NCBI GenBank assembly: GCA_016182605.1
Contig: JACPGE010000016.1
Coordinates: forward strand, 62,001 to 126,000
DNA length: 64,000 nt
Direction: 5' to 3'
Source: Candidatus Hydrogenedentota bacterium
Lineage (GTDB): Bacteria; Hydrogenedentota; Hydrogenedentia; Hydrogenedentales; JAEUWI01
In this document: positions 27,555 to 31,868 of the stretch, in pieces
Layout of the letters: each line of letters starts with the position of its first letter
Numbering within the stretch: position 1 is the first letter of the stretch
Notes under the pieces: model-generated
Database searches by the model: none
Told to the model about the DNA's origin: nothing
The model's input: the letters and a program-made list of their open reading frames with translations, nothing else
Position numbers and translations under genes: made by a program

Positions 27555-27953
27555 ATGAATTACCAGGATTACGTCGACTCGGCCAACGCCGCGAGCAAAA
27601 AATTTGACGACAACGACCTGGACGGCGCCATGTCCGGCTTTGAAGAGCTTGTCAAGAGCGACATCTCCGACATCGACAAGTCGATCATGTGCTACAACAT
27701 CGCGCGGGTGTGCGAGAAGGGCGGACATATCGACCACGCGCTCGAATGGTTCGACTATGGCGTCTCGCTGGAGGAGCCGCTTTGCCGCTGCCTGCTGCAG
27801 GAACACAAGGCCGCCTTCCTGGCAAATCTGCGCCGCGACGCCGAATCCCTTGCGATCTATGAAGCACTCTACACGCAACCCTACCTGCAAGAATCTGACA
27901 AGGAACGCATTTGGAAAAACATCCTGGTCTTGCGCAACCCGCGTCCGGCCTGA
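27555..27953 (+). CDS. Small TPR-like protein
   Basis: A 132-residue cytosolic protein with a strong TTGGAGG ribosome binding site. It consists of helical pairs resembling tetratricopeptide repeats: ANAASKKFDDNDLDGAMSGF, then CYNIARVCEKGGHIDHALEW, then AAFLANLRRDAESLAIYEAL. TPR proteins act as protein-protein adaptors; no partner is suggested by the context. It appears monocistronic. Confidence 0.7.
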   Translation: MNYQDYVDSANAASKKFDDNDLDGAMSGFEELVKSDISDIDKSIMCYNIARVCEKGGHIDHALEWFDYGVSLEEPLCRCLLQEHKAAFLANLRRDAESLAIYEALYTQPYLQESDKERIWKNILVLRNPRPA

Positions 27954-27994
27954 GATCCATCCCAGTCAATTGCAGGATGCTCCGGCCCTAACCC

Positions 27995-28199
27995 GCATAT
28001 TTCACCACTTTGCGACCTCCGGATCGCATTCGGATTGGCAACGTGGTGAAATATGCTCAGCGTAACGTCGATGCTGGCGTTCACTGGGCAGGCTAAATCA
28101 CGGGCTGTTTGTTATTCCCAAGCTTGAAGTTGGGACAACGATATGTATGAATGGGTGTTACGACTACATCGTTTGGAGCCCGTGATTTATCCGGGCTAA
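27995..28199. repeat. Composite palindromic repeat, copy 1
   Basis: Two nested inverted-repeat units lie side by side. The first is GCATATTTCACCAC (27995-28008) with its perfect complement at 28043-28056. The second is TAAATCACGGGCT (28094-28106) with its complement at 28177-28189, separated by 70 bases. The whole ~200-bp block recurs in inverted orientation at about 38263-38460 with many substitutions, and a partial copy lies at 33895-33962. There is no coding capacity. Confidence 0.75.
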
Positions 28200-28333
28200 A
28201 GACGTAGCGTGAAGCAAGCGGCCGCGAGGCAGGGGGCGCGTGGCCCGGTCCTGTTCCCGATGCATTTTCCCCGAGCGCCAAGGCTCTTGAAAGGACCCCT
28301 TTCACCGGACGCTTACGATGAAGACTTGGGTTA

Positions 28334-28605
28334 CGGGGACAGCCCCGAATGGCACTAACTTAAGGACATGGCTCGAAGCATTGCCACGCAAAAACACGGG
28401 AATGACATCAACAAACCGGACAAAGTAGGCCTTCGCTCGCCGAGCGTAGGCATTTCCACACGAGCCAGCCGCACCACACTCTAACAATGACGTTCCAAAC
28501 GTTGAAATGGCCCTTCGAAGGGGATAGCGGGGATCTAAGAACCTTACGCAAGACCAGACACCGGCATGATTTACCGCTAAGTTAGTACCATTCGGGACAG
28601 TCCCG
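28334..28605. mobile_element. MITE-like element with ~29-bp terminal inverted repeats
   Basis: The left end CGGGGACAGCCCCGAATGGC plus ACTAACTTAAG (28334-28364) is matched by the complement of 28577-28605 with a few mismatches. The 210-base interior has no transposase frame that I recognise, so it is either a non-autonomous element or the shell of an insertion sequence. No clear target-site duplication could be assigned. Confidence 0.55.
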
Positions 28606-28721
28606 CGCCGGTGCGGGACGGCGTTGCGGATCTGGGATATGCAGGCCCCGCGGGGACAACCCCCTTTGGTTCGGGAAAGAGAGATCGCTCACGGCGTTCG
28701 AGATGACGATTGGGGGGCGGG

Positions 28722-28889
28722 TTCTCCACAACTTATCCACCGGTGGAGAAATTGTGGGGTGTGGCGGTCTGGCATGCCAGATTGGGCGGAATTGGGGGTG
28801 CTTATACTTGTTTCAACGGTGGAATAACGGTGGATAAGTAGGGATCGGGTGTGGATGGACTGTGGAGATGTGGATAACTTTGTGGAGAA
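28722..28889. other. Cluster of DnaA-box-like nonamers in mirrored pairs
   Basis: TTCTCCACA (28722-28730) and TTATCCACC (28733-28741) lie on the plus strand. On the minus strand TTCTCCACA (28881-28889) is followed by TTATCCACA (28869-28877), a perfect consensus box. A further minus-strand TTATCCACC lies at 28829-28837. The two pairs have the same order and 11-12-base centre spacing, in opposite orientation. No dnaA or dnaN is nearby. It could be a DnaA-binding site, an origin-related locus or a control region. Confidence 0.5.
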
Positions 28890-28899
28890 GCCGGCGGTA

Positions 28900-29487
28900 T
28901 CAGCCGGAAAAGCGGTAGAAAAGATCGCGGAGGAGGTAGACCGTGTATTCGAGCGCGTACTGCAGCCAGTCGCGCAGCCCGGGAAGGAAGGCGGCGGCGA
29001 TCCCGAGGACAACAAGCAGGGGGATGAGGTAGCGGAAGGAGCGGCCGAAGAGAAAAGGTAGCGCGCCGCCGATGGCCAGGAAGAAGCGAAGGAAGGTCTT
29101 TAAAGCGAGGTGGATGAACCACCAGGCGTCGCTCTCGGTGGGGAGCCCGTGGCTGCGTTCTGCGAGGCCGCCGTTGGAGCAGACCAGTGCGAGGCGGGTG
29201 TTGCCAACCTGGAGGGTGCCTTGGTTGCGCAGGATGCGGGAGCGGATGAGGCCGGCGCGTTTACCGTTGACGTAAACGGGCTGGCGGTCGAGGGCGCGGA
29301 CGCGGTATCCGTCGGAGACGACGGTAAGCCGGGCCTGGATACGCCGGATAGCGCCGTCGAGGCGGAGATGTACGGCGCAGGCGGGATCGGCGCCGATGTC
29401 CAGTGGGGTGCGCACGAGGGTGAAGGTGGTGCCGTCTTCGGGGCCGTTGACGACTTCGAGGCGGTCTGGATAGCCAACGCCTTTCAT
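28900..29487 (-). CDS. Membrane-anchored, degenerate FHA-domain protein
   Basis: A 195-residue protein. Residues ~10-105 follow the FHA beta-sandwich pattern (GTTFTLVRTPLDIGADPACAVHL, quoted in two parts as GTTFTLVR and LDIGADPACAVHL, then RRIQARL, PVYVNGKRAG, LQVGNTRLAL). The phosphothreonine-binding Gly-Arg and Ser-Arg-x-His residues are replaced (IGAD, RRIQA), so pThr binding is doubtful. Two hydrophobic segments near 135-150 and 155-175 suggest membrane insertion with the FHA part in the cytosol. The start codon overlaps the upstream Clp ATPase stop as ATGA, so the two proteins are translationally coupled and probably work together. Confidence 0.7.
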   Translation of the reverse strand: MKGVGYPDRLEVVNGPEDGTTFTLVRTPLDIGADPACAVHLRLDGAIRRIQARLTVVSDGYRVRALDRQPVYVNGKRAGLIRSRILRNQGTLQVGNTRLALVCSNGGLAERSHGLPTESDAWWFIHLALKTFLRFFLAIGGALPFLFGRSFRYLIPLLVVLGIAAAFLPGLRDWLQYALEYTVYLLRDLFYRFSG

Positions 29488-31868
29488 GGGGCGATCTCCT
29501 GTTTGGCGTCGTGGGGTTTGCCGCGCCTGTAGGTGAGTTGCCCATCCTCCATGAGGACATCGATCATGTCGCCAACGCGGAACTCGTTGTTCAGGAGGCG
29601 CTCGCTGATGGGTTTGGTGATGTGGGTGTCGACGATGCGCCGGAGTTCGCGTGCGCCGAATTGCCGGTTGTATCCTTTTTCCGCGAGGAACTCGTAGGCC
29701 TGTTGGTACATGCGGATGCCGATGTGTTTGTCGCGCAGGCGATGTCGGATGCTGTTGATTTCGAGGCGGAGGATGTTGCGGATGTCTTCGGCGAGGAGCG
29801 GGTAGAACGGCACGATCTCGTCGATGCGGTTGATGAACTCGGGGCGGAAGTGGCCGCGCATTTCCTGCACGAGCGCGTCGTGTATGTCTCCAGTTTCGGA
29901 GCGGTAGAGGAGGTCTGCGCCGATGTTGGAGGTCATGATGATGATGCAGTTGCGGAAGTCGACATTACGGCCGCGGGCGTCTTTGAGGCGGCCCTCGTCG
30001 AAGATGGGCAGGAAGAGATCGTAGACGCGGGGATGGGCCTTTTCGATCTCGTCGAAGAGGAGAATGGAGAAGGGGGCGTCTTTCACGGCGCCGGTGAGGC
30101 GGCCTTCTTCGTCATGACCGGCGTAGCCCGGGGGCGCGCCGATGAGCTTGGCGACGGAGTGCTCTTCCTGGTATTCGGACATGTCGAAGGTGATGAGGTG
30201 TTTGGTGGAACCGAAGAGGTGGCGCGCAAGCAATTTCGCGAGCTGGGTCTTCCCCACGCCGGTGGGCCCAAGAAAGAGAATGACGGCATCCGGGCGGTTC
30301 GGATCGGCGAGGCCGGCGCGGGATTTCTTGACGGCGGCCACGGCCTTGGCCACGGCCTCGTCCTGACCGATGAGTTCCTTGCGCAACTGGCGGTCGAGGT
30401 CGTTGAGCTGGAGGCGTTCTTCGGAGGTCATCTGTTCGATGGGAACGGCGGTGATCTGGCTGACCACCTTGCGGATGTCGTGCGGGTTGACCGCGTCCTC
30501 CCCCTGCACGATGCCGTGGGCCTGCGTCAATTCCGGGTCGCTCTGAAAGGCGACGCGCCGGAGGCGATGCCGGGAGCAGGCCTGATCGAGGACATCGATG
30601 GCCTTGTCGGGGAAATTCCGGTTGGGCATGTAGCGCCCGGTGAGGGTGATGGCGGCCTGGAGGGTGCGCGAGCGGATGCGCACGCCGTGGTGTTTCTCCA
30701 GGGAGGGGCGCATCGACTTGAGGACTTCGAGGGTGTCTTCCGGGGAGAGTTCCTCCACACGGACCATTTGGAAACGGCGCTCGATGGCGGGGTCTTTTTC
30801 GACGAATTTGCGGTATTCCTGGACCGTCGTGGCGCCGACGCAGCGAATCTCGCCGCGCGCGAGCACGGGCTTGAGAAGGTTGGCCATGCTCATGACATCG
30901 CCGTCGGTGGCGCCCGCGCCCATGATCATGTGAATCTCGTCGATAAACAAGACGGACTGGGGGTTCTGCTTGAGTTTGTCAAGAAGCTTGAGGACTTTTT
31001 CCTCGAAGGCGCCCCGGTACTGGGTGCCGGCCATGAGGGCCGCGATATTGAGTTCAAAGATCTCGAAGTCGGGCAGGGCAGAATCTTTGCTGTGGCGGGC
31101 CAGATGGCGGGCGAGCCCTTCGACCAGTTGCGTCTTCCCCACGCCGGCTTCCCCCACGAGCATGACGTTGTTCTTGGTCTTGCGGGTGAGGATCTGGAGC
31201 ATTTCCATCTGTTCGCTGTCGCGGCCGATGCATTTGCTGAGCCTGCCTTTGCGGGCTTCGCGCGAAAGACTGCGCACGAGCCCGTTGAGACCGTCGGCCT
31301 TTTCCTGCTGTGCCGGGTCGCCCCCTGGCCCCGTGGGCGGCGTGGCGGGCTGGCCCTCGAAACCCGATTCCGCCCTGCGTATGGCCTTGAGTTGATCCAG
31401 TTGCGAGATGGTGTCGGTCTTGACCTGTTGTGGTGACGAAAAGTGCTCCGTCAACAATTTGATGCACTGCGGGCGGTCCAGTTCAAGGGCGTCCATGGCG
31501 CTGCTGGGCGCAGCGAGGGGATCGGACAAGATCGAGAGCATCAAATGCCCGGGGCGCGCGTGGCCGAGGCGGAAGCGCTCGGCGAGTTTCGTGGCCTGAT
31601 TGATGGCGTTGATGGCGCGGGGGGTGTAAAAGATTTCGCCCGACGCGTTCGGAATGGCGCCGCTCCAGGGCTGCCGCTGGCATTCGCGGAGTGCCGAAAA
31701 CCAGGCGTTGAGATAGAGATCGCGAATGTCTTCGGGCAGCACATCGGAATCGTCCAGAAGGGCGGCGAAGAGGTGCTCCACGCCAACATAGAAATGCCCC
31801 TGCCGGACACTGATCGCCACGGCCTGTTCCACGACGGAATTGACCGCCGGCGACACGTTAATCTGCAC
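29484..31868 (-). CDS. Double-AAA+ Clp/Hsp100 ATPase without ClpP-docking loop
   Basis: A 794-residue Hsp100 unfoldase started at a GTG with GGGAGG seven bases upstream. A Clp N-domain (1-145) and a linker lead to D1 with GEAGVGKT (239-246), pore loop GTQYRG (281-286) and FIDEIH (308-313). D2 has GPTGVGKT (534-541), pore loop GYAG (591-594) and DEIEKAHP (606-613). The long ClpB coiled-coil middle domain is missing and I see no IGF/IGL tripeptide, so neither classic ClpB disaggregation nor ClpP partnering is obvious. The partner gene encodes a membrane FHA-like protein. ClpV of type VI secretion also co-occurs with FHA proteins, but no secretion genes are visible here. Confidence 0.9.

What the first reader, a model, noticed from the sequence alone, without database searches (positions are those of the whole stretch)
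28722..28889. Mirrored pairs of DnaA-box-like nonamers in a gene-free gap
Five near-consensus boxes fall in 168 bases. Two pairs have the same order (TTCTCCACA then TTATCCAC[AC]) at helical spacing and face each other. Chance occurrence of this symmetry is small. The site could be a replication origin, a DnaA-titrating or regulatory locus, or the foot of an inverted duplication. Gene orientation here (plus to the left, minus to the right) does not look like an origin.
Basis: partly seen in the sequence, partly recalled or inferred. Interest (0 to 1): 0.6.

Follow-up and report, generated by a model that had tools for sequence, protein, structure and literature searches.

The report
Extra DnaA-box cluster outside oriC
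A short non-coding stretch in an uncultured Hydrogenedentota bacterium holds the tightest group of docking sites for the replication starter protein DnaA that we found in its genome, but it is not the origin of replication; it most likely soaks up or organises DnaA, as extra DnaA-box clusters do in E. coli and Bacillus.

Summary
Five nonamers within one mismatch of TTATCCACA lie at 28722-28889: two on + at the left, three on - at the right, paired at 11- and 12-bp pitch. Two-mismatch boxes in phase bring the count to eight or nine. Chance is excluded (expected about 0.02 per 168 bp). Genome-wide pattern searches found no comparable group of these boxes. The cluster is single-copy DNA in a 946-bp convergent gap whose left part is three dispersed repeat families.
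It is not the chromosomal origin. The genome is a Candidatus Hydrogenedentota MAG. Its probable oriC is on another contig, upstream of dnaN: an AT-rich gap whose box positions recur at fixed offsets in most of 23 dnaN loci, with rsmG and the genome's only parS-like site 9 kb away. The left pair shares 18 of 20 bases with the pair upstream of dnaA, and pairs upstream of dnaA recur in relatives, so this is plausibly a real DnaA-binding module.
Best reading: a lineage-specific extra-oriC DnaA-box cluster, probably a DnaA sink. datA's IHF site and the DARS core spacing are not met; a DnaA roadblock behind the FHA-Clp operon is another rival. New member of a known kind, modest interest.

The parts
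28722..28730 (+). DnaA box L1, TTCTCCACA (1 mismatch)
28733..28741 (+). DnaA box L2, TTATCCACC (1 mismatch), 2 bp after L1; L1-L2 shares 18 of 20 bases with the pair upstream of dnaA
28742..28750 (-). weak box, TTCTCCACC (2 mismatches), converging on L2 with no gap; part of the 28726-28757 palindrome
28726..28757 (.). 32-bp near-palindrome CCACAACTTATCCACC/GGTGGAGAAATTGTGG (88% complementary arms)
28768..28781 (.). perfect 14-bp palindrome TCTGGCATGCCAGA between the arms, role unknown
28818..28826 (-). weak box, TATTCCACC (2 mismatches to TTWTNCACA), 11 bp from 28829
28829..28837 (-). DnaA box R1, TTATCCACC (1 mismatch)
28850..28858 (-). weak box, CCATCCACA (2 mismatches)
28861..28869 (-). weak box, ATCTCCACA (2 mismatches)
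28869..28877 (-). DnaA box R2, TTATCCACA (perfect)
28881..28889 (-). DnaA box R3, TTCTCCACA (1 mismatch), 3 bp from R2
27954..28899 (.). convergent intergenic gap that holds the cluster
27988..28199 (.). dispersed repeat family R1 (about 212 bp, dozens of copies at mostly 85-88% identity), flanking context
28334..28610 (.). dispersed repeat family R2 with terminal inverted repeats, MITE-like (about 277 bp, about a dozen copies), flanking context
28602..28721 (.). dispersed short repeat pieces, ending at the first DnaA box
28900..29487 (-). FHA-like protein gene (PF16697); stop codon 10 bp from box R3
29484..31868 (-). ClpA/B-type AAA+ protein gene, same operon
27555..27953 (+). small 132-aa protein, no Pfam match; left neighbour

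Best explanation
The site is an extra-oriC DnaA-box cluster in a Hydrogenedentota chromosome. DnaA probably binds each arm cooperatively, head to tail, on boxes about one helical turn apart: two boxes on the left arm, four to six on the right arm. The arms converge and may be bridged. With no promoter or gene to serve and no origin function, its most likely effect is to hold DnaA away from oriC and so affect initiation timing. Shown: the boxes, their spacing and orientation, single copy, genome-wide rarity, and a different conserved dnaN-linked origin candidate. Inferred: DnaA binding in the cell, cooperativity, titration.
For: Density far above chance and unmatched in genome-wide searches. 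The left pair TTCTCCACAACTTATCCACC matches the pair 5' of dnaA (TTCTCCACAACTTATTCACA) at 18 of 20 bases. Boxes on the opposite strand upstream of dnaA recur in six related genomes, at the same 11-bp pitch in four. A 2-bp gap between like-oriented boxes was optimal for cooperative DnaA binding in Thermotoga (PMC10316083). oriC is elsewhere. Extra-oriC clusters affect initiation in B. subtilis (PMC5295017) and titration is supported in E. coli (PMC12371093).
Against: The FHA gene recurs in 33 of 60 relatives, but none of the 29 relatives' loci checked has the cluster beside it. No other member of its genus was among the genomes searched, so selection on the site cannot be tested. No binding data. 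Distance from oriC unknown because the assembly is in 130 contigs.
Confidence: 0.55

Rival explanations
1. A catalytic DnaA-control site: datA-like (hastens ATP hydrolysis) or DARS-like (releases ADP through opposed DnaA protomers).
For: Several boxes in a non-coding gap, as at datA and the DARS loci (PMC4585315). The left arm has the DARS topology: two tandem boxes plus one opposed box; the 3-bp gap of the right pair equals that of two boxes in the E. coli bioD-uvrB gap.
Against: The opposed box has two mismatches and a 0-bp gap against 5 bp in E. coli DARS1, half a helical turn off. No match to the E. coli IHF consensus. Not conserved in relatives.
Confidence: 0.15
2. A DnaA roadblock that ends or regulates transcription of the FHA-Clp operon, whose last stop codon is 10 bp from box R3.
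For: No intrinsic terminator found on either strand. Transcripts leaving the operon run straight into the right array. DnaA bound at the asnC terminator is reported to block RNA polymerase (cited in PMC10950094).
Against: Relatives keep the FHA gene without boxes. A roadblock does not explain the second, mirrored arm.
Confidence: 0.12
3. A second, relic or conditional replication origin, for example from an integrated replicon.
For: Box arrays at helical pitch as in origins; the least stable 50 bp of the cluster (from 28797) is in the 99.5th percentile of the window.
Against: No initiator, partition or replication domain among the 20 neighbouring proteins scanned; no similar plasmid or phage DNA; arm polarity opposite to E. 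coli oriC; skew positive on both sides.
Confidence: 0.08
4. Not a DnaA site: tandem sites of another protein, or a decayed element whose repeats resemble DnaA boxes.
For: The gap is a landing zone for three repeat families; the cluster has its own palindromes.
Against: The cluster is not found elsewhere, other repeat copies have no boxes nearby apart from one single box, and one box is a perfect consensus while the left pair matches the dnaA upstream pair.
Confidence: 0.1

Closest known systems
Bacillus subtilis extra-oriC DnaA-box clusters (DBCs; Okumura et al. 2012, as reviewed in PMC5295017 and PMC13220808)
   Same: A group of DnaA boxes outside oriC on a chromosome; deleting all six in B. 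subtilis gives early initiation.
   Different: One strong cluster found here rather than six; mirrored arms; no binding data; phylum unrelated.
E. coli datA
   Same: About five boxes in a non-coding gap away from oriC.
   Different: datA boxes are widely spaced, mostly same-strand and flank an IHF site; here helical-pitch pairs, mirrored, no IHF match.
E. coli DARS1/DARS2
   Same: Tandem boxes next to an opposed box.
   Different: DARS1 spacing 5 and 3 bp, here 0 and 2 bp in the left arm; the opposed box is weak; accessory sites absent or unknown.
Bacterial oriC, including the Hydrogenedentota oriC candidate identified here upstream of dnaN
   Same: DnaA boxes in tandem.
   Different: No linked replication gene, arms of opposite polarity to E. 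coli oriC, not conserved.

Membership tests
Chromosomal oriC | conserved position beside origin genes (dnaA, dnaN, rsmG, parS) | tested here: not met
   dnaN and rsmG on contig C35, dnaA on C115; the only parS-like site is C35:29585
Chromosomal oriC | GC-skew minimum at the site | tested here: not met
   skew is positive on both sides of the cluster on contig C29; skew is noisy and the genome fragmented
Chromosomal oriC | AT-rich unwinding element next to the boxes | tested here: inconclusive
   cluster 49% AT against 38% in the window; least stable 50 bp in the 99.5th percentile; the dnaN gap is weaker still
Extra-oriC DnaA-box cluster (DBC) | dense group of near-consensus boxes outside oriC | tested here: met
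Extra-oriC DnaA-box cluster (DBC) | DnaA binds it and its loss changes initiation | not testable with these tools
   needs binding and genetic assays
datA | IHF site between essential boxes | tested here: not met
   no WATCAANNNNTTR match in 28501-29100; the host's IHF-like proteins may use another motif
datA | stimulates hydrolysis of DnaA-bound ATP | not testable with these tools
   biochemistry
DARS core | three boxes: one opposed, then two tandem, at set spacing | tested here: not met
   topology present in the left arm, but spacing 0/2 against 5/3 bp in E. coli and the opposed box has 2 mismatches
MITE or other dispersed repeat | several copies in the genome | tested here: not met
   single copy by genome BLAST

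The most novel reading that the evidence does not exclude
A dedicated DnaA-control locus, mirrored and unlike datA and DARS in layout, that arose in one Hydrogenedentota lineage and changes the nucleotide state or availability of DnaA through facing oligomers.
Probability: 0.12. Interest if true: 0.6.

Novelty: new member of a known kind. Interest (0 to 1): 0.35.

Why it matters
Extra-oriC DnaA-box clusters with a role in initiation are well documented in a few model bacteria. A clear case in an uncultured phylum would add to the evidence that control of DnaA through chromosomal sites is widespread and evolves quickly. The same analysis gives Hydrogenedentota a strongly supported oriC candidate with conserved box positions, which makes origin architecture in this phylum testable.

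Tried and rejected
Origin reading: rejected after finding the conserved dnaN-linked gap and the parS-like site. Repeat or MITE reading of the cluster: other copies of the neighbouring repeats carry no box clusters and the cluster has one copy. Conservation beside the FHA gene in relatives: absent. Plasmid or phage origin: no similar DNA, no replication gene in the scanned neighbours. RNA element: no Rfam match and no tRNA. A named-organism search with the FHA protein found nothing, so dnaN was used. The second DnaA-like protein, a possible alternative binder, lacks a domain IV match and so probably cannot read boxes.

Full report
WHAT IS THERE. The five boxes are at the stated coordinates. Left arm, + strand: TTCTCCACA 28722 and TTATCCACC 28733, with 2 bp between. 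Right arm, - strand: TTATCCACC 28829, TTATCCACA 28869, TTCTCCACA 28881, the last two with 3 bp between. Weaker boxes with two mismatches sit at 28742 (- strand, converging on the left pair with no gap), 28818, 28850 and 28861. The right arm is therefore a run of one orientation over 72 bp, mostly at 11-12 bp steps. The left pair and the weak opposed box form a 32-bp near-palindrome, 28726-28757.

CHANCE. The one-mismatch box occurs 54 times in 397 kb of this genome. Five in 168 bp compare with an expectation of about 0.02, and the rate-based expectation for such a group anywhere in the genome is of order 1e-5. A 3-Mb third-order Markov sequence never had more than two in 170 bp. With two mismatches allowed, this is the densest spot on the contig: 8, against 4 for the next best. 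Genome-wide pattern searches gave eight tandem pairs at helical pitch, two of them here, and no other place had more than one of the looser tandem or inverted matches close together. Those patterns do not cover all one-mismatch boxes, so the claim is 'densest found', not 'proved unique'.

CONTEXT. The gap 27954-28899 lies between a small + gene and the - operon of an FHA-like protein and a ClpA/B-type ATPase. Genes converge on it, so no promoter is served, and no promoter-like or terminator-like site was found. The left part of the gap consists largely of dispersed repeats: 27988-28199 (dozens of copies), 28334-28610 (about a dozen copies, inverted ends) and pieces between 28602 and 28721. The box cluster begins where the repeats end and was found only once. 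Other copies of the repeats carry no box clusters.

NOT THE ORIGIN. The organism is a Candidatus Hydrogenedentota MAG, judged by dnaN (75% identity to the nearest named relative). Upstream of dnaN, on contig C35, is a 632-bp gap of 58% AT. In 23 dnaN loci, mostly Hydrogenedentota, the 1000 bp upstream of dnaN are 13 times richer in boxes than the rest, and box positions recur at about -605, -334, -245, -181 and -162. The only parS-like site at two mismatches or fewer (TGTTCCACGTGGAACA) lies 9 kb away on C35 inside rsmG. The pattern's control also returned one match per strand, so that site is supporting, not decisive. On contig C29 the skew is positive on both sides of the cluster. E. coli oriC has outer - boxes at the left and + boxes at the right; this cluster has the reverse.

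A PLAUSIBLE DnaA MODULE. Upstream of dnaA (C115) there is TTCTCCACAACTTATTCACA on the strand opposite to the gene; the left pair here is TTCTCCACAACTTATCCACC. In six related genomes boxes also lie on the opposite strand upstream of, or at the start of, dnaA, in four of them at the same 11-bp pitch. In Thermotoga, cooperative binding of like-oriented boxes is best with 2 bp between them (PMC10316083). That dnaA controls itself through these boxes in this phylum is inference.

HOW IT PROBABLY WORKS. Inferred: DnaA oligomers form on each arm and keep DnaA from oriC. Deleting six such clusters in B. subtilis caused early initiation, strong only when all six were removed (PMC5295017). Titration on the chromosome is supported in E. 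coli (PMC12371093). datA needs an IHF site, for which no consensus match exists here. The DARS core needs opposed and tandem boxes (PMC8682772): scanning the E. coli bioD-uvrB gap, where DARS1 lies by my own knowledge, gave + box, 5 bp, - box, 3 bp, - box. The left arm here has the same topology but 0 and 2 bp, and the opposed box is weak. So neither membership is claimed. A transcription roadblock behind the operon is a further rival.

LIMITS. No member of the same genus was among the searched genomes, so conservation could be tested only at family and order level, where the FHA gene is kept without boxes. Pattern hits in 64 of 100 genomes are mostly single pairs, and in the relatives of the same order none of the listed hits showed two facing groups within 300 bp. 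The assembly is in 130 contigs, so distance to oriC is unknown.

VERDICT. A real, ordinary-in-kind, lineage-specific extra-oriC DnaA-box cluster with an unusual mirrored layout.

Noticed in passing
G000:C35:20023-20654 (L012:134-765): Probable oriC of Hydrogenedentota: AT-rich gap upstream of dnaN with DnaA boxes at conserved offsets in most of 23 dnaN loci; L163 (titled Nitrospiraceae) and L174 (titled Rhodothermaeota) group with these and are probably mislabelled MAGs.
   Followed up: partly
L102:6863-9109 (G000:C31, - strand): 748-aa protein with an N-terminal MshEN domain and a C-terminal DnaA-type AAA+ domain but no domain IV match, next to a PilB/GspE-like gene: a DnaA ATPase module apparently reused outside replication.
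   Followed up: partly
G000:C35:29585-29798: Single parS-like site TGTTCCACGTGGAACA inside rsmG, with three near-consensus DnaA boxes within about 210 bp.
   Followed up: partly
L136, L137, L138, L144 (G006, G013, G014, G005): A tandem DnaA-box pair at 11-bp pitch recurs beside an argG-like gene near an nrdR-like gene in four related genomes.
   Followed up: no
window 27988-28199 and 28334-28610: Two abundant dispersed repeat families (dozens of copies and about a dozen), the second MITE-like with inverted ends; both unnamed here.
   Followed up: partly
window about 50000: GC skew switches from positive to negative about 21 kb right of the cluster; contig C29 has skew blocks of about +/-0.2 over tens of kb, while C35 and C115 have weak skew.
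   Followed up: no
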